NCBI RefSeq assembly: GCF_039545795.1
Contig: NZ_CP154260.1
Coordinates: 4,717,001 to 4,781,000, forward strand
DNA length: 64,000 bases
Direction of reading: 5' to 3'
From: Chitinophaga niabensis
GTDB lineage: Bacteria > Bacteroidota > Bacteroidia > Chitinophagales > Chitinophagaceae
Shown: positions 15,676-25,166 of the stretch, one piece after another
Numbering within the stretch: the stretch's first letter is position 1
How the letters are laid out: every line of letters starts with the position of its first letter
Translations under genes and position numbers: made by a program
Notes under the pieces: generated by a model
What the model saw: only the letters and a program-made list of their open reading frames with translations
What the model was told of the DNA's origin: nothing
The model's database searches: none

Positions 15676-16260
15676 TCAATGATCCCTGCTCACCAGTACG
15701 CTGGTCAATTCATTCAATTTCTTCACTTTATCATTGAAATCACCTTTCAGCCTGTCCCTCAGGATCTGCAAATGCTGTAAAACAGATTCCAGGGTATCGG
15801 GGATGGCATCGTTCAGTACCTCTTTTAATCTTTTTGCGATGGTGGGGGATTTGCCGTTTGTGGAAATGGCGATCTTCAGGTTTCCTTTCTGTACAATGGA
15901 ACCCAGGTAGAAATCGCATAAGCCGGGGGTATCTGCTACATTGATCAGCACCTTGCTGGCTTTTGCTTTTTCCCAGATGCATGCATTTAATTCCCTGTCT
16001 GCCGTGGCGGCAATCACCAGGTCTTTTCCGAACAGGTCTCCACAGGAGAACGCTTTTTGGATGAGCGTTACATTAGGGAACCCGGCCGTGAGGCTTTCCA
16101 GTTCAGGTGCAAACCAGGTAGCCACAACGGTTACCCTTGCTGCGGGGCAATTCTGTAAGATGGCGTTCACTTTTTCCGTACCCACATTTCCACCTCCTAC
16201 TACCAGTACCTGTAACTGATCCAGCTTAAAGAAAACAGGAAATAAATGATTCTCTTCCAT
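15676..16260 (-). CDS. Precorrin-2 dehydrogenase (siroheme synthase N-terminal type)
   Basis: 194 residues, the size of stand-alone SirC/Met8-type proteins. A Rossmann motif L-V-V-G-G-G-N-V-G-T-E-K-V lies at about 19-31, and N-V-A-D-T-P-G-L-C-D-F-Y-L-G-S-I-V (about 101-117) with A-I-S-T-N-G-K-S-P carries the conserved Asp of precorrin-2 dehydrogenase/ferrochelatase. It oxidises precorrin-2 to sirohydrochlorin with NAD and may also insert iron to give siroheme. The gene starts 11 bases after cobA ends, the third gene of the sulfite-reduction operon, and supplies the reductase cofactor. Confidence 0.93.
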   Translation of the reverse strand: MEENHLFPVFFKLDQLQVLVVGGGNVGTEKVNAILQNCPAARVTVVATWFAPELESLTAGFPNVTLIQKAFSCGDLFGKDLVIAATADRELNACIWEKAKASKVLINVADTPGLCDFYLGSIVQKGNLKIAISTNGKSPTIAKRLKEVLNDAIPDTLESVLQHLQILRDRLKGDFNDKVKKLNELTSVLVSRDH

Positions 16261-16271
16261 AAGATCACATT

Positions 16272-17048
16272 TTATGCTATTTGCTTGTAATTCTCCGCGA
16301 GCTTTGCCTGCAGGTCCTGAAACGCTTCATGGAACCTTACCACTTCCCCTATCACAATGATTGCGGGATTCTTCAGCCCCTGCTCTCTTGCAAATGTACC
16401 CAGATCAGACACATTTCCCACACCCATTTTCTGGGTAGGGAGTGTTCCGTTCTGAATAATCGCGGCAGGCGTCTGGCCTTTACCCTGTTGGGTGTAAATA
16501 GCAGCAATTTCATCCAGTTTACTCATGCCCATGAGGATCACTACCGTAGTATTTGCCTGGATAGCAAATTCCAGGTCACGGGAAAGTTTTCCATCCTGGG
16601 TGGTACCCGTGATCACCCAAAACCCTTCACTCACGTTACGTGCGGTTACAGGAATTTTATTCACACCCGGTACGGAAATAGCACTGCTGATGCCGGGGAT
16701 CACTTCTGTTTCTATACCATACTGCTGTGCAGAAGCCAGTTCTTCCTGACCACGGCCAAATACAAAGGAATCGCCGCCTTTCAGCCGGACTACACTCCCA
16801 TAGGTTAATGCATATTTAACGATCATGCGGTTAATCTCAGCCTGTGTGTACACATGCATACCTGCGCGTTTGCCTACAAAACGTTTCAGACAGTTCTGTG
16901 GTGCATTGTCCAGCAGTTCATTGTTGGATAAAGCATCATAGAGGATCACCCGGGCATTTTGAATGGCCTTCAGTCCTTTTACAGTGATCAGTTCCGGGTC
17001 TCCGGGTCCCGCGCCTACCAGTGTCACTTTCGGTTGTATTGTTTGCAT
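16272..17048 (-). CDS. cobA: Uroporphyrinogen-III C-methyltransferase
   Basis: 258 residues. The SUMT signatures are clear: V-G-A-G-P-G-D-P-E-L-I-T-V-K-G (11-25) and V-V-R-L-K-G-G-D-S-F-V-F-G-R-G-Q-E-E (about 85-102). It methylates uroporphyrinogen III twice with S-adenosylmethionine to give precorrin-2, the substrate of the next gene product. It lies 14 bases after the sulfite reductase gene and 11 before the dehydrogenase, so all three are read as one operon. No cobalamin genes are nearby, so siroheme is the likely end product. Confidence 0.96.
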   Translation of the reverse strand: MQTIQPKVTLVGAGPGDPELITVKGLKAIQNARVILYDALSNNELLDNAPQNCLKRFVGKRAGMHVYTQAEINRMIVKYALTYGSVVRLKGGDSFVFGRGQEELASAQQYGIETEVIPGISSAISVPGVNKIPVTARNVSEGFWVITGTTQDGKLSRDLEFAIQANTTVVILMGMSKLDEIAAIYTQQGKGQTPAAIIQNGTLPTQKMGVGNVSDLGTFAREQGLKNPAIIVIGEVVRFHEAFQDLQAKLAENYKQIA

Positions 17049-17062
17049 GATCGGTTAGTTTA

Positions 17063-19177
17063 TTAAGCGTTTGCACTCGCCGCCTGTTTTTCAAGACGGT
17101 ATTCCTGCGCTCTGTCATAAAATGCCTTTGCCTGTTGATAGTATTGTTTGGCAAAGCTTTCAGTTGGTTCGTGCTGGTTGATCTGCAGCACCAGTGTTTT
17201 GAAACTGTCTATTTTAAAGCGGCCTGTTTCTACAAAGTGTTTGTCAAAATCAGCGATGATACCGTGTTGTGTATTACAGTTCACGTTTTCATCCAGCAAC
17301 ATGGTTTTAGCGGTTTGGATCATACATGCATATGAATGATAGATACCGTCTGCCCATGAATTGTTGGCAAAAGATTGTGCTGCCCATTCCAGTTTTTCTT
17401 CCGCTTCAAATAATAAAGTAGCAATGAGATCGATCATTACACCGGCACATTCTCCCACACCGATAGCAGTGCTGAAAGTTTCTGCCTGGCCCCAGTCGAT
17501 GAAATCACTGTCTCCCAAAACACTCAGGTCTGCCAGTGGTTTCAGCAGTTCATAGAAGTATTTCTCTCCTTTACGATCGTAGTAATCATTGAACAGTTCT
17601 TTCTTCTCGCTGTTGGATTCATAATCATGCAGCAGGGTGCGCAGTACATCAGGACCTTTACGGCTGGGCACTTTCAGTACTTTATCAGAAACACGGCCTA
17701 CACCATCGCCAACAAGACCACCACCCAGCAATACCTGCAGGGCTGGCAATACTTTACCACCGCTCTTCATGGAAGAACCATGGAAACCAATATGTGCCAT
17801 ACCATGCTGACCGCAGGAGTTCATACAGCCGCTGATCTTTATTTTGATATCATTATTATAAATGAGATCGGGGAATTCGTTGTGGATCACTTCTTCCAGT
17901 GCAGCGGCGATACCGGTGCTGCTGGAAATACCCAGGTTACAGGTATCTGTACCAGGGCAGGCAGTGATGTCTGCAATACTATCGAAACCTGCGGCCTGGA
18001 AACCTACTTCTTCCAGTAAACTGAAAACGTAAGGCAGGTGTTCAGGAAGGATATATTTCAGCAATAAGCCCTGGTTAACGGTTACGCGTACATCATCAGC
18101 AACAACAGGCGCCAGTTTTTCCAGCAGGGTGCGGGAATCTACGGAACTGATATTACCTAACGGTACCCGTACATAAGCACCATAATAACCTTTTTGCTTT
18201 TGCTCGAAGGTGTTGGTTTTCTTCCAGGCTTCGTATTGCTTAGGATCTTTAATTGTATAAGAAGGCAATGCAGGGTTGGCTGCAGGCAGCGCTGGCTCTT
18301 TCCATGCAGCGTGATCTACCGGCACTGATTTCAGTTTAACCGCTTTATATTCTTCTTTCACCAGGCGCTCGAATTCTTCCATACCGATCTTGGCGATGAG
18401 GAATTTCATACGGGCTTTATGCCTGCTGGTCCTTTCACCATGACGGTCGAATACACGCAGGATACTTTCTGTGTAAGGGATCAGCTGATCTGCTTCCAGG
18501 AATTCAAAAGCTACTTTCGCGAGATAAGGTTGTGCACCTAATCCGCCACCTACCAATACTTTGAAGCCACGAACTTCTTTACCATCTATGATGCGGATCT
18601 TAGGGATCACACCGAGGTCGTGCATGAAAGAGAAGGCAGTATCCCTGTCGCTGGAAGAGTAAGAGATCTTGAACTTACGGCCCATATCCTGGCAAACGGG
18701 GTTGCGGAGGAAATAACGGAAGGCGGCATCCGCATATGGCGTGATGTCAAATGGTTCTTCCGGATCTATTCCTGCTTTATCAGAAGCGGTGATATTCCTC
18801 ACGGTGTTACCGCAGGCTTCGCGTAAAGTGATATCGTCTATTTCGAGTTTCGCCCAGAGTTCAGGAGTTTTGTCCAGGGAAACAAAGTGGATCTGTATAT
18901 CCTGACGGGTGGTCAGGTGGAGGTTCCCGGTGGAGTATTCATCCGAGATGTCAGCAATACGTTTCCATTGCTGTAAAGTCATTTTACCATAAGGAAGTTT
19001 GATGCGCACCATTTGCACACCTTGCTGGCGTTGTCCGTAAACGCCACGGGCTAAACGCAGGCTGCGAAATTTCTCGTCAGACATCTTTCCTTCTCTAAAC
19101 AGCCTGATCTTTTGCTCCAGTTCGATGATGTCCTTTTCTACAATCGGATTTTCCAGTTCAGTTCTGAAACTTTGCAT
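17063..19177 (-). CDS. Siroheme nitrite/sulfite reductase with C-terminal HEPN-like region
   Basis: 704 residues. It has two half-domains of the sulfite/nitrite reductase fold, with T-G-N-L-H-L-T-T-R-Q-D-I-Q (83-95) for siroheme binding and the four cluster cysteines Cys407 and Cys413 (C-P-G-T-D-T-C) and Cys451 and Cys455 (C-M-N-S-C), which hold a 4Fe-4S cluster bridged to siroheme. The family usually ends near residue 540; here about 150 further residues form a helical region resembling HEPN domains, a layout I recall from Bacteroidota. Sulfite rather than nitrite is the likely substrate because the leader upstream appears to sense cysteine. It is first in the operon with cobA and precorrin-2 dehydrogenase. 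Confidence 0.93.
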   Translation of the reverse strand: MQSFRTELENPIVEKDIIELEQKIRLFREGKMSDEKFRSLRLARGVYGQRQQGVQMVRIKLPYGKMTLQQWKRIADISDEYSTGNLHLTTRQDIQIHFVSLDKTPELWAKLEIDDITLREACGNTVRNITASDKAGIDPEEPFDITPYADAAFRYFLRNPVCQDMGRKFKISYSSSDRDTAFSFMHDLGVIPKIRIIDGKEVRGFKVLVGGGLGAQPYLAKVAFEFLEADQLIPYTESILRVFDRHGERTSRHKARMKFLIAKIGMEEFERLVKEEYKAVKLKSVPVDHAAWKEPALPAANPALPSYTIKDPKQYEAWKKTNTFEQKQKGYYGAYVRVPLGNISSVDSRTLLEKLAPVVADDVRVTVNQGLLLKYILPEHLPYVFSLLEEVGFQAAGFDSIADITACPGTDTCNLGISSSTGIAAALEEVIHNEFPDLIYNNDIKIKISGCMNSCGQHGMAHIGFHGSSMKSGGKVLPALQVLLGGGLVGDGVGRVSDKVLKVPSRKGPDVLRTLLHDYESNSEKKELFNDYYDRKGEKYFYELLKPLADLSVLGDSDFIDWGQAETFSTAIGVGECAGVMIDLIATLLFEAEEKLEWAAQSFANNSWADGIYHSYACMIQTAKTMLLDENVNCNTQHGIIADFDKHFVETGRFKIDSFKTLVLQINQHEPTESFAKQYYQQAKAFYDRAQEYRLEKQAASANA

Positions 19178-19230: not shown

Positions 19231-19315
19231 TAAAAAAACAAAACCTCCGTTGGCATATCGGAGGCTTAAACTTGTATGATTCTGAAAACAGATACTTCAT
19301 ATGTATAAACCTCCT
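19231..19315 (-). promoter_or_regulatory. Transcription attenuator with mutually exclusive stems
   Basis: Three segments on the minus strand can pair in two ways. Segment 1 (19315-19306, AGGAGGTTTA) overlaps the leader-peptide stop codon. Segment 2 (19268-19259, TAAGCCTCCG region) can pair with segment 1 over nine positions (one G-T) as an antiterminator. Alternatively segment 2 pairs with segment 3 (19249-19241, CGGAGGTTT), a nine-pair terminator stem with a nine-base loop followed by a T-rich tract to 19232. The sulfite reductase gene starts 54 bases further on. Confidence 0.8.
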
Positions 19316-19379
19316 AGTCCGTTGAGTGAGCCCAACAGCACATGCACATATTCAAACCCATTGATACTTGATTACCCAT
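19314..19379 (-). CDS. Cys/Met-rich leader peptide (21 residues) of the sulfite-reduction operon
   Basis: ATG at 19379, TAG at 19314-19316. Residues 11-16 read Met-Cys-Met-Cys-Cys-Trp, giving three cysteines and four methionines in 21 residues, far above chance. The stop codon overlaps the first arm of the antiterminator. If ribosomes stall on the cysteine codons (19335-19346), that arm stays free and blocks the terminator; if they reach the stop, they cover the arm and the terminator forms. This is the classical leader-peptide attenuation design, with cysteine as the signal. The peptide is too short to be found by normal gene callers. Confidence 0.8.
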   Translation of the reverse strand: MGNQVSMGLNMCMCCWAHSTD

Positions 19380-19405
19380 ATTCCTATAGATTTTGTAGAG
19401 TAATA

Positions 19406-19436
19406 CAAAGATATAGGTCCCGTGACGAATGGCAAA
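19406..19436 (-). promoter_or_regulatory. Promoter of the sulfite-reduction operon
   Basis: On the minus strand TTTG (19436-19433), a spacer of exactly 19 bases, and TATCTTTG (19413-19406) match the Bacteroidota promoter consensus. Transcription should start near 19400, about 20 bases before the leader peptide, giving a leader RNA of about 220 bases. Confidence 0.75.
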
Positions 19437-19552
19437 ACTTTTTTTAATAAAAAAGGGGGGTATAAATTAGAAATTTTCGAAAGGTGGGTTGCGGCGGGGT
19501 GTTTTTGGAGGGTGGAGGTTTCGCGTGGCTGCTGAAAAGGCGGCTGGCTGGG

Positions 19553-19680
19553 GCAGGAAGTTCTGCTGAGGGGGCTTCTGAATGCGGCAGGAACTTCTGC
19601 AGAGGAGGCTTTTGCAGGAGATCAACGGCTTCTGTATGCAGCAGGAAGTTCTGTGGAGGAGACTTTTGCATGCGGTAGTT
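19553..19680 (+). repeat. Degenerate direct repeats upstream of the HAD phosphatase promoter
   Basis: GCAGGAAGTTCTG or a one-base variant begins at 19553, 19587 and 19641, each followed by a G-rich stretch and CTTCTG or CTTTTGCA. The block GGCTTCTG-ATGC-GCAGGAA is also repeated before the second and third copies. The third copy supplies the TTTG of the promoter at 19665. Open frames across it on both strands are low-complexity and look non-coding. Confidence 0.6.
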
Positions 19681-19694
19681 TCGCGTTACCTTTG
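19665..19694 (+). promoter_or_regulatory. Promoter of the HAD phosphatase gene
   Basis: TTTG at 19665-19668, an 18-base spacer and TACCTTTG at 19687-19694 match the Bacteroidota consensus. The ATG follows 20 bases later. Confidence 0.7.
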
Positions 19695-19714
19695 CGGCGG
19701 CGAAAAACGACTAT

Positions 19715-20368
19715 ATGATCAATACCGTGATTTTTGATATGGATGGCCTGCTGATTGACTCGGAACCTCTTTGGGGCCTGGCCATGCGGGAGGTGTTTTC
19801 AACAGTAGGGGTAGAGCTTTCGGCTGAACTGGCCAGCCATACTACCGGCCTGAGAACCAAGGAAGTAGTAAGCTACTGGCACAATTATTTCAAGTGGGAT
19901 GCCAAAAGTGCTGAGCAGGTGACGGATGAGATCATCGAAGGTGTGACGGCCAAAATCCTCCGGGAGGGCCGGGCCATGGAAGGACTTCATTATATACTGG
20001 ACTTCTTTGCACAACGGAATTTCAAAATGGGGTTGGCCTCCTCCTCTCCTATGCGGCTGATCCAGTCGGTTTTAGACCATTTGCAGATCGGGTCTTCCCT
20101 GCATGCGGTGGTTTCTGCAGAATTTGAGCCTTACGGCAAACCCCATCCGGCAGTTTACCTTTCCTGCGCGGAGAAATTGAACAGTTCCCCGCTGGAATGC
20201 GTGGCTTTTGAGGATTCCGTAACTGGTATGATAGCCGCCAAGGCTGCCAGGATGAAAGTGGTGGTGGTGCCGGAGGTACACAGGCGGGAGGAAAAGAAGT
20301 TTGTACTGGCGGATCTGAAACTGGATTCTTTACTGGAGTTTGATCAGGGAAAGCTGGAACTGCTGTAA
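19715..20368 (+). CDS. hxpB: HAD-family sugar-phosphate phosphatase (HxpB/YniC-like)
   Basis: 217 residues; E. coli HxpB has about 220. HAD motif I is D-M-D-G-L-L-I-D-S-E-P (8-18, nucleophile Asp8, acid/base Asp10), motif II is S-S-S-P (about 108), and motifs III/IV are K-P-H-P-A-V-Y and F-E-D-S-V-T-G. The helical cap between motifs I and II is of the beta-phosphoglucomutase type. The E-P-L-W stretch after motif I is typical of hexitol- or 2-deoxyglucose-6-phosphatases. It stands alone behind its own promoter and ends at a shared terminator. Confidence 0.85.
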   Translation: MINTVIFDMDGLLIDSEPLWGLAMREVFSTVGVELSAELASHTTGLRTKEVVSYWHNYFKWDAKSAEQVTDEIIEGVTAKILREGRAMEGLHYILDFFAQRNFKMGLASSSPMRLIQSVLDHLQIGSSLHAVVSAEFEPYGKPHPAVYLSCAEKLNSSPLECVAFEDSVTGMIAAKAARMKVVVVPEVHRREEKKFVLADLKLDSLLEFDQGKLELL

Positions 20369-21977: not shown

Positions 21978-24900
21978 TCAGAATTTCACCTGTACGTTTA
22001 CACCAAATGTAATGGGCAAAGGCAGGTTACCACCTTCCACACCCTGGATATTTCCGCCGCTGTTAGTGAGTTCCGGATCAATGAATTTGTTTGCCTGGTA
22101 AATGTTCCAGAGGTTACGGCCGTAACCGGCTACGCGTATCTGGCGAACTACGGATGTTTTCGCAAAGGGGATTGTATATCCTGCTGTTACTTCGCGCAGT
22201 TTTACATAAGTACCATCAAACACACTTTGTGTGGTAGGACCATTGGAGAATCCATATGCCCAATCGTATGCGGAGATCTTTGTTGTATTTGTTTTGGTGT
22301 TGCCTACGGTATAAGAACCATCTGGTTTAAATACCACATCGCCATTTACACCTTCCAGTACCAGGCCATTCTCACGGATACCATTGGCTGCAGTAGGTTC
22401 CAGCACGCCTGTTTGCATACCTACTTTATAGGTCTGGGAAAATACCTTTCCTCCTACACGCCCGTCTACCAGGAAGCTGGCATCAAAACGTTTATAAGAG
22501 AATTGCTGTTGTACACCGAACTGCCATTTGGGCAACACACTTCCGATAGAGCGTAATTGTTCTGTTCTGGCGTAAGCACCATTAGCGGTGATCACTTTGT
22601 TGCCGGCATTATCATACACAAAATCATATCCCAGCAACTGACCGTAGGCCTCTCCTTCTCTTGCTACTAATGTAATGAGTGAACCGGTTGGATCGGTAAG
22701 CGGGAAGCTGGTTACACCTTCAGAAAGTTTTACTACTTTATTGGTGTTCTTAGACCAGTTAAAGCTAACATCCCAATTGAAATCTGTTGTTCTTATTGGT
22801 GCAACGTTCAGCGTTACTTCCACACCCTGGTTATTGATCTTTCCTGCGTTGATGAATTTTGATTCATAACCCAATGCAGTGGATACGGGTATATTGATGA
22901 TCTGGTTTTTACTATCGTTATTATAGAAAGTAACGTCCAGCCCTACACGGTTGTTGAAAGCTCTTACGTTCAGGCCTGTTTCCCATGAGCTGGTGATCTC
23001 TGGTTTCAGGTCTTTATTCGCCAGCACGGCCGGTAATTTATAACCGGGGTTGCCATTGAAAGGTTGCTGGGCTTCGTAAGCCTGCTGTAACTGGTAAGGG
23101 TCTGTATCGTTACCCACCTGTGCCCAGCCCAGGCGAACTTTCAGGAAGTTCAGCCAGGATATGTCTTTCAGACCTTCCAGTTCGCTGACGATGAAACTGG
23201 AGGATACAGACGGATAAGCAAAGGAGTTCTTATCACGTGGCAGCGTACTGCTCCAGTCGTTGCGGATGGTCCCATCCAGGAAGAGTAAGTTCTTATAGCC
23301 TAAGGATACACTTCCAAATAAAGAGTAGATGCTTTTATGATAGAAGTTGGATTCATTCAATACACTGGTGGCGTTCTTCAGATTGTAGTACAAGGGAATG
23401 ATCAAACCGCCCTGTGTAGCTGCATTGGAAATACGGCGTTTCTGGTCCATGATATTACCACCGGCATAAGCTGTGAGTGATAAAGTGCTCCAGCGTTTGT
23501 TGGCAGTGGCCAGGAATTCATAGTTGAACTCATTGAATGAATTTGCATACTCGGTGTAGTTACTCTGGCTACGGGAGAATACAGCGATCCTGTCCTGGTA
23601 CTGATAATTATAAATATCTGCATTCACTTTGGAACTCAGCTGCAGCCAGTTGTTCACATCGTAAGCAAGACCGATATTTCCGTAGAAGCGATCGCGGTTT
23701 TCCTCGAGGTAACTTTCGTGGGCAGACCAATAAGGGTTATCTATGTATTTAGTAGCCCTGCCTGCTGTGGTATTTTCCCAGCTGTTGCGGTTCCAGGAAC
23801 GGGGTGTACCATCGGGACGTTTGTAATCACTGAGCTTATCATAATCCACCTGCACCTGGCCCCATTGAAATGCTTCCAGCATGATGTTACGGTTGGAAGC
23901 ACCTGTCCATGGGCGGCCGGTGCTGCTGTTCTTCACATAATTGAAGTTGGCAGTAGCCAGTAAACGGGAGAAACGGGTGGAGCCGGAGAAGTTGATGGTA
24001 TTCCTTTGCAGGCTGGAATTAGGTACAGTACCTCTTACAGACTTGTTCGTATAAGAAAGACGGAAAGTTTGATTTTCTCCGCCGCCGCTAACAGAAATGT
24101 TGTTGGTAGAAGAAATACCCGTACGGAAGAAATCAGTAACATCCTTTTTAGGATATATCCATGGTGTTGCTTTCAGGTAATCCGCGGTGTATTCAGGGTC
24201 CAGGTTATACCAGTTTAATACAGGCGTACCATCCAGTTTAGGGCCCCAACTTTCATCCATACCGTAATCAACGATCTTGTATGTTTGCCCGTTGATCACT
24301 GCTTCCTGGAAGGTATTGCTTTTACCACCGCCATATAGTTTCTGGCGTTCAGGTAAGCGGTTGATCCTTTCGAGTTCAATACCTGAATTGATGGTGACAT
24401 CGTATCCTCTGCCGGTACGGCCTTTTTTAGTAGTGATGAGGATAACGCCATTCGCTGCGCGCGATCCATACAAAGCTGCGGCAGATGGGCCTTTCAGCAC
24501 ACTTACGTTTTCAATGTCATCCGGGTTGAGGTCTTGTACCATGTTCCCAACATCTTTACCGGCAGAACCATTAGTGGTGCTTTTGGTATTGAGGTCGGCA
24601 TTGTCAATCGTAACACCGTCAATCACAAAGAGTGGCTGGTTATTACCGGAAATAGAATTAATACCTCTTAATAATACTCTGCTGGATCCGCCCATATTGC
24701 CACCAGAGGTGATCACCTGCAAACCGGCAACTTTGCCGGAGAGTGCACTCAATGCATTGGTGGGGCGGGTTTGCAGTTCTGCGCTTTTCACTTCCTGTAC
24801 AGCATAACCCAGTGCTTTTTTGCTGCGGGAGATACCTAAGGCTGTAACCACTACTTCCTGCAATTGTTTATCAGCGGCATGCAGTGTGATGTTGATCGTT

Positions 24901-25166
24901 GACTGGCCGTTGATGAGTATGGATTGTGTTTCCATACCGATCAGGGAGAAGGTGAGCAGTGTTGCGGTATCCGGAGGCTGGAGGGCATATGTGCCGTCTG
25001 CGGCAGTTGCGGTTCCTGTTCCGGTACCTTTAATAAATACGGAAACGCCGGGTAGTGGCTGTCCGCCTTCGGTAATTACTTTACCGGTGATTTTCCTGCT
25101 TTGCGCATGAAGGGTAATGGTTGTTAGGAGCAAAAGCAGGGTTGTTAGTATATAGTTCTGTCGCAT
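21978..25166 (-). CDS. SusC/RagA-family TonB-dependent receptor
   Basis: 1062 residues. After a signal peptide (cut near H-A-Q-S) comes a carboxypeptidase-regulatory-like domain (about 24-105, I-T-G-K-V-I-T-E-G-G-Q-P-L-P-G-V-S-V), then the plug with G-L-Q-V-I-T-S-G-G-N-M-G-G-S-S-R-V-L-L-R-G and L-F-V-I-D-G-V (about 150-180), and a 22-strand barrel ending V-N-V-Q-V-K-F. It imports oligosaccharides or peptides captured by the partner SusD, using TonB energy. A GH39-like enzyme lies just upstream on the same strand, which suggests a xylose-containing or related substrate. Confidence 0.97.
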   Translation of the reverse strand: MRQNYILTTLLLLLTTITLHAQSRKITGKVITEGGQPLPGVSVFIKGTGTGTATAADGTYALQPPDTATLLTFSLIGMETQSILINGQSTINITLHAADKQLQEVVVTALGISRSKKALGYAVQEVKSAELQTRPTNALSALSGKVAGLQVITSGGNMGGSSRVLLRGINSISGNNQPLFVIDGVTIDNADLNTKSTTNGSAGKDVGNMVQDLNPDDIENVSVLKGPSAAALYGSRAANGVILITTKKGRTGRGYDVTINSGIELERINRLPERQKLYGGGKSNTFQEAVINGQTYKIVDYGMDESWGPKLDGTPVLNWYNLDPEYTADYLKATPWIYPKKDVTDFFRTGISSTNNISVSGGGENQTFRLSYTNKSVRGTVPNSSLQRNTINFSGSTRFSRLLATANFNYVKNSSTGRPWTGASNRNIMLEAFQWGQVQVDYDKLSDYKRPDGTPRSWNRNSWENTTAGRATKYIDNPYWSAHESYLEENRDRFYGNIGLAYDVNNWLQLSSKVNADIYNYQYQDRIAVFSRSQSNYTEYANSFNEFNYEFLATANKRWSTLSLTAYAGGNIMDQKRRISNAATQGGLIIPLYYNLKNATSVLNESNFYHKSIYSLFGSVSLGYKNLLFLDGTIRNDWSSTLPRDKNSFAYPSVSSSFIVSELEGLKDISWLNFLKVRLGWAQVGNDTDPYQLQQAYEAQQPFNGNPGYKLPAVLANKDLKPEITSSWETGLNVRAFNNRVGLDVTFYNNDSKNQIINIPVSTALGYESKFINAGKINNQGVEVTLNVAPIRTTDFNWDVSFNWSKNTNKVVKLSEGVTSFPLTDPTGSLITLVAREGEAYGQLLGYDFVYDNAGNKVITANGAYARTEQLRSIGSVLPKWQFGVQQQFSYKRFDASFLVDGRVGGKVFSQTYKVGMQTGVLEPTAANGIRENGLVLEGVNGDVVFKPDGSYTVGNTKTNTTKISAYDWAYGFSNGPTTQSVFDGTYVKLREVTAGYTIPFAKTSVVRQIRVAGYGRNLWNIYQANKFIDPELTNSGGNIQGVEGGNLPLPITFGVNVQVKF

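What the first reader, a model, noticed from the sequence alone, without database searches (positions are those of the whole stretch)
19231..19436. Cysteine-sensing leader-peptide attenuator ahead of the siroheme sulfite reductase operon
Seen: a consensus promoter, a 21-codon leader gene with Met-Cys-Met-Cys-Cys-Trp, a stop codon that overlaps the first arm of an antiterminator, and a terminator with a T-rich tract, all within 206 bases. The antiterminator and terminator share CCTCC and cannot coexist. Inference: lack of charged Cys-tRNA stalls ribosomes on the Cys codons (19335-19346), leaving arm 1 free to block the terminator; plentiful cysteine lets ribosomes reach the stop and cover arm 1. 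Known: Cys-rich upstream frames regulate sulfur genes in mycobacteria; I do not know of a described case in Bacteroidota.
Basis: partly seen in the sequence, partly recalled or inferred. Interest (0 to 1): 0.85.

Follow-up and report, generated by a model that had tools for sequence, protein, structure and literature searches.

The report
Cysteine-sensing switch for sulfite reductase
A tiny cysteine-rich gene in front of a bacterium's sulfite reductase genes looks like a switch that stops their transcription when cysteine is plentiful, and similar switches, sometimes two in a row, sit in front of the same gene in many related bacteria.

Summary
On the minus strand, ahead of a NIR_SIR-family sulfite/nitrite reductase and siroheme genes, lie a Bacteroidota-type promoter, a 21-codon leader (MGNQVSMGLNMCMCCWAHSTD), an antiterminator whose first arm shares a base with the stop codon, and an intrinsic terminator using the same CCTCC. 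Alone it is only suggestive; comparison carries it. In Chitinophaga, 30 of 35 loci keep at least 2 Cys codons in frame with a conserved ATG, while the stop-to-terminator spacer shows no frame. In an even class-wide draw, 47 of 91 reductase loci have a Cys-Cys leader plus terminator, against 1 of 91 on the opposite strand. Antiterminator arms pair better than shuffled or swapped ones, starting a median 15 nt after the last Cys-Cys. Best reading: ribosome-mediated transcription attenuation by Cys-tRNA supply. Against: 5 of 35 Chitinophaga loci lack the Cys cluster, 44 of 91 class loci had none detected, and there are no RNA data. The kind is known (cysS leaders in Rhodobacterales): a new, widespread variant.

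The parts
19433..19436 (-). -33 promoter element TTTG
   Evidence: Sequence; Bacteroidota consensus recalled, no call.
19406..19413 (-). -7 promoter element TATCTTTG (TAnnTTTG)
   Evidence: Sequence; its TTTG was found at this place in all 35 Chitinophaga loci examined.
19383..19402 (-). Operator-like motif TACTCTACAAAATCTATAGG between promoter and leader
   Evidence: One of only two exact matches of TASTCTAYN5YTATAGG in the genome; the other lies before cysH-cysD-cysN. 13 of its 20 positions are invariant in 35 aligned leaders. Role inferred.
19314..19379 (-). Leader ORF, 21 codons, MGNQVSMGLNMCMCCWAHSTD, stop included
   Evidence: Sequence; at least 2 Cys in frame with the conserved ATG in 30 of 35 Chitinophaga loci.
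19335..19346 (-). Sensing codons Cys-Met-Cys-Cys (TGC ATG TGC TGT)
   Evidence: Sequence; Cys and Met enrichment in leaders of the class sample.
19319..19338 (-). Hairpin P1 CUGUUGGG-CUCA-CUCAACGG, overlapping the last Cys codons; probable pause/protector hairpin
   Evidence: in 12 sequences (window and 11 relatives) 95.8% of cells pair against 33-49% when slid, but no two-sided change, and the letter shuffles do not separate it from chance.
19306..19314 (-). Antiterminator arm 1 GGAGGTTTA
   Evidence: native pairing -18.6 kcal/mol against -8.4 shuffled.
19260..19268 (-). Antiterminator arm 2 TAAGCCTCC (overlaps terminator 5' arm)
19241..19267 (-). Intrinsic terminator hairpin AAGCCTCCG / CGGAGGTTT
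   Evidence: -11.7 kcal/mol; equivalents at the same place in the Chitinophaga relatives.
19232..19240 (-). U-tract TGTTTTTTT of the terminator
   Evidence: Sequence.
17063..19177 (-). Regulated gene 1: siroheme sulfite/nitrite reductase, 704 aa, weak HEPN-like C-terminus
   Evidence: PF01077, PF03460, PF05168; no NCBIfam equivalog cut-off reached.
16272..17048 (-). Regulated gene 2: uroporphyrinogen-III C-methyltransferase
   Evidence: TIGR01469 over cut-off. Co-transcription inferred from spacing.
15676..16260 (-). Regulated gene 3: siroheme synthase N-terminal-type dehydrogenase
   Evidence: TIGR01470 over cut-off. Co-transcription inferred from spacing.

Best explanation
It is a ribosome-mediated transcription attenuator. 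RNA polymerase transcribes the leader ORF while a ribosome translates it. If charged Cys-tRNA is short, the ribosome stalls on Cys-Met-Cys-Cys; its footprint ends just before GGAGGTTTA, which pairs with UAAGCCUCC, so the terminator cannot form and the reductase-siroheme operon is transcribed. If Cys-tRNA is plentiful, the ribosome reaches the UAG, covers GGAGGTTTA, the terminator folds and transcription stops near 19232. Shown: the elements, their conservation, pairing beyond chance, the geometry, and the dependence of the terminator's 5' arm on ribosome position in folding models. Inferred: translation, stalling, termination, and that cysteine supply is the signal. Probable addition: Met codons beside the Cys codons let the leader also feel Met-tRNA supply. 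Probable second layer: control of initiation by a Rrf2-type regulator at the motif shared with cysH-cysD-cysN.
For: Elements. At least 2 Cys in frame in 30 of 35 Chitinophaga loci, ORFs of 18-26 codons, stop-to-terminator distance mod 3 = 11/10/9. Leader with CC or at least 2 Cys plus terminator in 50 of 81 loci (window and 80 relatives). Class sample: CC leader in 47 of 91 loci, opposite strand 1 of 91 at hairpin energy -10 or lower (4 of 91 at -8); CCC in 25 of 91 against 0, next residue 3. Antiterminator, 60 units in 47 loci: native -13.0, shuffled -7.7 (p 4e-11), swapped between families -9.5 (p 4e-8), median gap Cys-Cys to arm 15 nt, range 2-28. Truncated-transcript folding: 5' arm held 0.73 with ribosome at last Cys, 0.15 at stop (50 loci); 0.67 and 0.22 (60 units); shuffled spacers 0.43/0.37 and 0.37/0.28. 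Window full length: P(terminator) 0.004 and 0.946. Met near Cys 133 of 351 against 66 of 1078 elsewhere; ATG near Cys 133 in frame against 6 out of frame.
Against: No RNA or reporter data. Five of 35 Chitinophaga loci (L018, L019, L020, L032, L052; 0 or 1 Cys in the leader) lack the Cys cluster yet keep terminator and antiterminator. 44 of 91 class loci had no leader by the counted criteria. In full-length equilibrium folding only 11 of 50 loci and 6 of 60 units change P(terminator) by more than 0.2 between the two ribosome positions, so most need a kinetic argument. 24 of 60 units do not reach the 5% shuffle level for the antiterminator. In the 13 Mucilaginibacter-type loci native arms paired no better than swapped ones (-9.1 and -9.3). 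P1 shows no two-sided compensation in 12 sequences. Asn and Thr are also about twice as frequent in leaders as in control ORFs, so not all composition bias is about sulfur. The reductase could act on nitrite; no NCBIfam equivalog cut-off is reached.
Confidence: 0.86

Rival explanations
1. The Cys-rich nascent peptide, not Cys-tRNA supply, is the sensor: it binds a metal, persulfide or other thiol-reactive signal inside the ribosome and arrests translation, and the arrest drives the same RNA switch.
For: Runs such as MMCCCCCMM and a seven-Cys end could bind soft metals, and Met next to Cys also fits a metal-binding peptide.
Against: By eye, apart from the Cys and Met clusters no sequence motif recurs across families, and number and spacing of Cys vary from 2 to 7; this was not tested formally. 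The genes served that were checked are a siroheme reductase, siroheme synthesis, cysH, an aldo/keto reductase and a peroxiredoxin, not metal export.
Confidence: 0.06
2. The operon is controlled only by a regulator at the TCTAC...TATAGG motif; the hairpin is an ordinary terminator and the Cys ORF is incidental.
For: The motif is shared with cysH-cysD-cysN and lies just 5' of the leader; five Chitinophaga loci keep the motif, terminator and antiterminator without a Cys cluster.
Against: Does not explain in-frame Cys and Met enrichment, the antiterminator pairing or the usual gap, nor the tandem copies.
Confidence: 0.04
3. Translational or Rho-dependent attenuation, as considered for mycobacterial Cys leaders, with the hairpin acting otherwise than as a terminator.
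For: Cys leaders without terminators exist in Actinobacteria (PMC1262725, passages).
Against: A hairpin with a T-rich tract follows the Cys-Cys leader in 47 of 91 class loci; in the window it ends 63 nt before the start codon, away from the ribosome-binding region.
Confidence: 0.04

Closest known systems
uORFC-8-2 motif upstream of cysS, Rhodobacterales (PMC8632094; passages read)
   Same: Short uORF with tandem Cys codons usually at positions 14 and 15, two stems with the Cys codons in the first, intrinsic terminator, proposed Cys-tRNA attenuation.
   Different: Alphaproteobacteria only, serves cysteinyl-tRNA synthetase; no tandem arrays or Met codons mentioned in the passages read. No sequence comparison was made here.
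Mycobacterial polycysteine sORFs (PMC1262725 passages; PMC9094748 passages; Canestrari 2020 seen only as a citation, not held)
   Same: Cys-run upstream ORF ahead of sulfur/cysteine operons.
   Different: Leaderless ORFs by the cited title; PMC1262725 found no conserved hairpin that could be a terminator; here there is an intrinsic terminator and an antiterminator.
Classical trp/his-type leader-peptide attenuators (recalled; no call)
   Same: Leader ORF rich in the regulated residue, protector hairpin, antiterminator and terminator in that order.
   Different: Residue is Cys (with Met), target is sulfur reduction, host is Bacteroidota, two units in series in some relatives.
Leader-peptide candidates in Bacteroides thetaiotaomicron and Flavobacterium psychrophilum transcriptome maps (PMC7366714; PMC9723704; passages)
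   Same: Same phylum; 5' regions with short ORFs suspected of attenuation.
   Different: The passages read name no cysteine leader and no sulfite reductase; the supplements were not read, so such a leader could be listed there.

Membership tests
Ribosome-mediated leader-peptide transcription attenuator | Short translated ORF rich in codons for the regulated product | tested here: met
   At least 2 in-frame Cys in 30 of 35 Chitinophaga loci; CC is the commonest residue pair in the class sample, 47 of 91 loci. Translation itself not tested.
Ribosome-mediated leader-peptide transcription attenuator | Intrinsic terminator between leader and first gene | tested here: met
   (window -11.7 kcal/mol, T-rich tail, 63 nt before the gene). 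Predicted, not measured.
Ribosome-mediated leader-peptide transcription attenuator | Antiterminator mutually exclusive with the terminator and under ribosome control | tested here: met
   Shared CCTCC; pairing beyond shuffles and swaps; model switch (for the window). Modelled, not measured; at equilibrium most relatives do not switch.
Ribosome-mediated leader-peptide transcription attenuator | Read-through rises when the cognate aminoacyl-tRNA is short | not testable with these tools
   Needs RNA or reporter data.
uORFC-8-2 motif | Tandem Cys codons plus intrinsic terminator | tested here: met
   Cys at codons 12, 14, 15 and terminator.
uORFC-8-2 motif | Lies upstream of cysS in Rhodobacterales | tested here: not met
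   Lies upstream of a NIR_SIR gene in Chitinophaga. Not filed as a member.
Mycobacterial polycysteine sORF | No conserved terminator hairpin | tested here: not met
   Terminator and antiterminator present.
SAM riboswitch, T-box or any other Rfam family | Match to an Rfam covariance model | tested here: not met
   0 gathering matches in 64 kb; the two matches up to E 5 are unrelated leaders at 18.9 and 16.2 bits against cut-offs of 55 and 47.

The most novel reading that the evidence does not exclude
A large part of the class to which the window belongs uses an undescribed family of sulfur-amino-acid attenuators: leaders that count both Cys-tRNA and Met-tRNA, placed singly or as two complete Cys attenuators in series ahead of the sulfite reductase operon, so that two terminators must both be passed and the response to sulfur starvation becomes steeper or graded.
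Probability: 0.5. Interest if true: 0.75.

Novelty: new variant of a known kind. Interest (0 to 1): 0.63.

Why it matters
If the reading is right, many members of this class use charged tRNA as the readout of sulfur supply. Tandem attenuators for the same signal and a Cys+Met leader would be unusual natural designs (as far as I recall). Each prediction can be tested with a reporter construct or a term-seq experiment, and the Cys leader becomes a way to find sulfur operons in unannotated genomes.

Tried and rejected
A second ORF starting at 19300 after AGGAGG, a good Shine-Dalgarno look-alike, was considered as a coding alternative. Its start is lost in 5 of 12 aligned sequences (L005, L006, L007, L009, L010 have ATAGG), while GGAGG is explained as the antiterminator arm; rejected.

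Trp as the sensed residue (Cys-Cys-Trp): Trp follows the Cys cluster in the nearest relatives but not in others such as Mucilaginibacter, and W is 0.011 of leader residues against 0.013 in opposite-strand controls; rejected.

Known riboswitches or Rfam leaders: none. Other copies in the own genome: a sequence-only model from 35 leaders gave one strong match, the window itself (E 3e-25); the next of the 28 matches listed has E 0.003 and covers model positions 98-180 of 183; only 150 of 1674 first-look candidates were scored, so a diverged copy could be missed. No Cys leader was found in the gap before cysH-cysD-cysN; six loose hits (CC or 2 Cys) elsewhere in that 14-kb stretch lie in or between other genes.

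A crude scan of the whole 80 loci, both strands and coding regions included, had CC in 87 of 979 ORF-terminator pairs, only sixth after L, S, R, A and I. The Cys enrichment is therefore specific to the region upstream of the reductase, and that scan by itself would not have shown it.

First terminator search was too strict and was replaced. The first class-wide scan had some minus-strand loci unturned and was redone; only the redone counts are used. The first swap test cut the antiterminator arm off in loci whose stop lies beyond it and was redone with the last Cys codon as anchor; both are reported. Base-pair counting of the antiterminator on the MAFFT alignments was not attempted because one subclade is shifted there; energy swaps were used instead.

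Operons with the reductase behind other genes: 20 regions of 7.6-7.7 kb further upstream were scanned; one clear Cys leader (L241) and three TTG-start hits (L223, L235, L238) taken as chance. Of the nine genomes of family f70 among them, only L223 had a hit, one of those three.

Full report
What is there. The first gene starts at 19177, 63 nt after the hairpin. It is a 704-aa NIR_SIR protein with a weak HEPN-like C-terminus, followed by uroporphyrinogen-III methyltransferase and a siroheme-synthase N-terminal-type protein. NCBIfam cut-offs for sulfite or nitrite reductase equivalogs are not reached (best NirA family 221.8 bits against 523), so sulfite is inferred from the operon, from there being one full-length gene of this kind in the genome and a separate cysH-cysD-cysN operon (gene names from the Pfam domains and order), and from the Cys leader itself. 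The genome is a Chitinophaga by inference: the same-genus genome with the most similar leader holds a contig of the same length, with the leader at the same place, as a named Chitinophaga contig.

Chance on the window alone. The 170-nt leader folds at z -1.90, 4 of 200 shuffles as good, which would not decide the matter.

Chitinophaga. One search gave 80 relatives of the reductase with upstream DNA. Of 35 leaders compared (window, L001-L033, L052), 30 have at least 2 Cys in frame with the ATG at the conserved start, with ORF lengths of 18 to 26 codons; the distance from stop to terminator has remainders 11, 10 and 9 modulo 3, so the ORF but not the spacer keeps its frame. Much of the rest of the peptide drifts. 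Five loci (L018, L019, L020, L032, L052) lack the Cys cluster (0 or 1 Cys) but keep the operator-like motif, the antiterminator and the terminator. These are unexplained and count against universality; L018, L019 and L052 look like deletions of the Cys and P1 segment in the alignment. Over all 81 loci (window and 80) a leader with CC or at least 2 Cys plus a terminator was found in 50. Two more had Cys-rich frames from GTG starts (L058, L072) and some others only from weaker starts; none of these is counted.

An unselected class sample. Searches covered the same 395 genomes, drawn evenly from the class. 106 had a match; I used 91 loci (one is the window's own) and dropped 15: ten with only weak matches, five partial, weak, or without upstream DNA. 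Upstream 1.5 kb, or what the contig held, was scanned for ATG ORFs followed by a hairpin and T-tract, ORFs inside long genes left out. A Cys-Cys leader was found in 47 of 91 loci, on the opposite strand in 1 of 91 (hairpin at -10 kcal/mol or lower) or 4 of 91 (at -8). Three Cys in a row: 25 of 91 against 0 of 91; the next residue reaches 3. The 44 without include loci whose Cys-rich leader has no adjacent Cys pair (L167), was flagged as inside an ORF (L184), or lies further upstream (L176, found as L241). By family, 19 of 27 have at least one; the eight without are f70 (0 of 9), f28 (0 of 8), f22, f31 and f83 (0 of 4 each), f20 (0 of 2), f50 and f79 (0 of 1 each). In some of these the reductase lies behind other genes; 20 regions of 7.6-7.7 kb further upstream, nine of them from f70, added one clear Cys leader (L241, family f57) and three TTG-start hits taken as chance. 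In several positive loci the leader precedes another gene in front of the reductase; the three that were checked by Pfam are an aldo/keto reductase (L131), a 1-Cys-type peroxiredoxin (L127) and a PAPS-reductase-domain protein like CysH (L216).

Pairing and geometry. In 60 leader-terminator units of 47 loci, the stretch after the last usable Cys-Cys pairs with the terminator's 5' arm at -13.0 kcal/mol on average, against -7.7 for shuffles (p 4e-11) and -9.5 when arms are swapped between families (p 4e-8); 36 of 60 are at or below the 5% shuffle level; the gap from Cys-Cys to the arm has median 15 nt, quartiles 12.5 and 18.25, range 2-28. The same test on the 50 loci of the first set, which shares the window with the second, gave -14.39 native, -11.95 swapped (p 1.3e-6) and -8.91 shuffled (p 5.3e-15), 27 of 50 at or below 5%. 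Loci are related, so p values overstate the independent evidence. Against: in the earlier version native was -11.68 and swapped -9.93 over all (p 0.0012), and in the 13 Mucilaginibacter-type loci native did not beat swapped.

Switch model. When positions up to 12 nt past the last Cys codon are masked, as by a stalled ribosome, and the transcript ends at the terminator's 5' arm, that arm is held by upstream sequence at 0.73 (50 loci) and 0.67 (60 units); with the ribosome at the stop, 0.15 and 0.22; shuffled spacers give 0.43/0.37 and 0.37/0.28. The difference exceeds 0.5 in 34 of 50 and 25 of 60, and in none for the shuffled means. The window gives 0.89 and 0.01. With the whole transcript at equilibrium the window switches cleanly, P(terminator) 0.004 and 0.946, but only 11 of 50 loci and 6 of 60 units change by more than 0.2, because the complete terminator usually wins at equilibrium. 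The mechanism therefore has to be kinetic in most relatives, as is usual for attenuation (recalled).

Hairpin P1 (19338-19319) overlaps the last Cys codons. In 12 sequences (window and 11 relatives) 95.8% of cells pair, against 33-49% with the partner slid, but no pair changes on both sides, as expected if the 5' side is coding, and the letter shuffles reach the observed values 500 of 500 times and so say nothing. Hairpins of different sequence stand at about the same place in several other Chitinophaga.

First, methionine: among non-Cys, non-initiator residues of the 60 leaders Met is 199 of 1429, against 55 of 1989 in opposite-strand control ORFs and 26 of 828 in same-strand ORFs without CC; within two residues of a Cys it is 133 of 351, elsewhere 66 of 1078; 19 of 19 families show it. 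Asn and Thr are also raised about twofold (0.094 against 0.045, 0.086 against 0.045), Cys 3.5-fold and Met 4.4-fold. ATG within two codons of a Cys occurs 133 times in frame and 6 times out of frame. The leader seems tuned to both sulfur amino acids, though selection for unstructured mRNA or for internal starts is not excluded. Second, tandem units: 14 of 91 loci, in 8 families, carry two Cys-Cys leaders each with its own terminator, hairpin starts 131-279 nt apart. The window has one unit.

A second layer. Between promoter and leader lies TACTCTACAAAATCTATAGG. TASTCTAYN5YTATAGG, a pattern written after seeing both sites, has two exact matches in the genome, here and just 5' of cysH-cysD-cysN; a Rrf2-family gene lies about 2.7 kb upstream of the latter. 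With two mismatches the pattern was not enriched, 50 matches against 137 for its control. A relaxed palindromic form, chosen from those hits and not matching the reductase site itself, has 11 matches (10 sites) against 5 for the reversed pattern; by eye they stand before cysH, an O-acetylhomoserine-sulfhydrylase-like gene and a 1-Cys-type peroxiredoxin, but also before genes with no evident link to sulfur (gene names recalled except cysH). Control of initiation plus attenuation is likely but inferred.

Known and new. The kind, leader-peptide transcription attenuation, is classical (recalled). A Cys version with terminator is described for cysS in Rhodobacterales (PMC8632094, passages), and Cys leaders without terminators in Actinobacteria (PMC1262725, passages). 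Ten literature searches listed no paper that, by title, abstract start or the passages I read, reports a Cys leader in Bacteroidota; three lists were cut (20 of 43, 20 of 380 and 15 of 150), the library lacks most subscription papers, and supplements were not read. I therefore call it a new variant of a known kind.

Noticed in passing
window 25195-25176 (-), before the gene 21978-25166: TAGTCTATATAATTAATAGG, one mismatch from the motif shared by the reductase and cysH-cysD-cysN operons, just 5' of a gene pair that looks SusC/SusD-like by eye and lies next to the reductase operon; the pair might import a sulfur source.
   Followed up: partly
G000:C1:4387431-4387450 (L106); Rrf2 gene L106:858-1274: Exact second copy of the operator-like motif before cysH-cysD-cysN, with a Rrf2-family regulator gene about 2.7 kb upstream: a candidate sulfur regulon.
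   Followed up: partly
L127, L131, L138, L139, L141, L158, L171, L172, L174, L175, L202, L208, L212, L221: Two complete Cys-leader attenuators in series upstream of the reductase.
   Followed up: partly
L018, L019, L020, L032, L052 upstream regions: Chitinophaga loci with terminator and antiterminator kept but the Cys cluster absent, apparently by short deletions in L018, L019 and L052: natural mutants worth measuring.
   Followed up: no
L216: A leader ending in seven Cys codons stands upstream of a cysH-like gene followed by the reductase.
   Followed up: no
window 17063-19177: The reductase carries a C-terminal stretch that just passes the Pfam HEPN cut-off (22.6 bits against 22); unusual for this enzyme family as far as I recall.
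   Followed up: no
window 19700-19500: Imperfect repeats of about 60 bases (CAGAAG...CTTCCTGC) between the gene at 19715 and the promoter, seen by eye; Tandem Repeats Finder, run on 19400-19800, reported none.
   Followed up: partly
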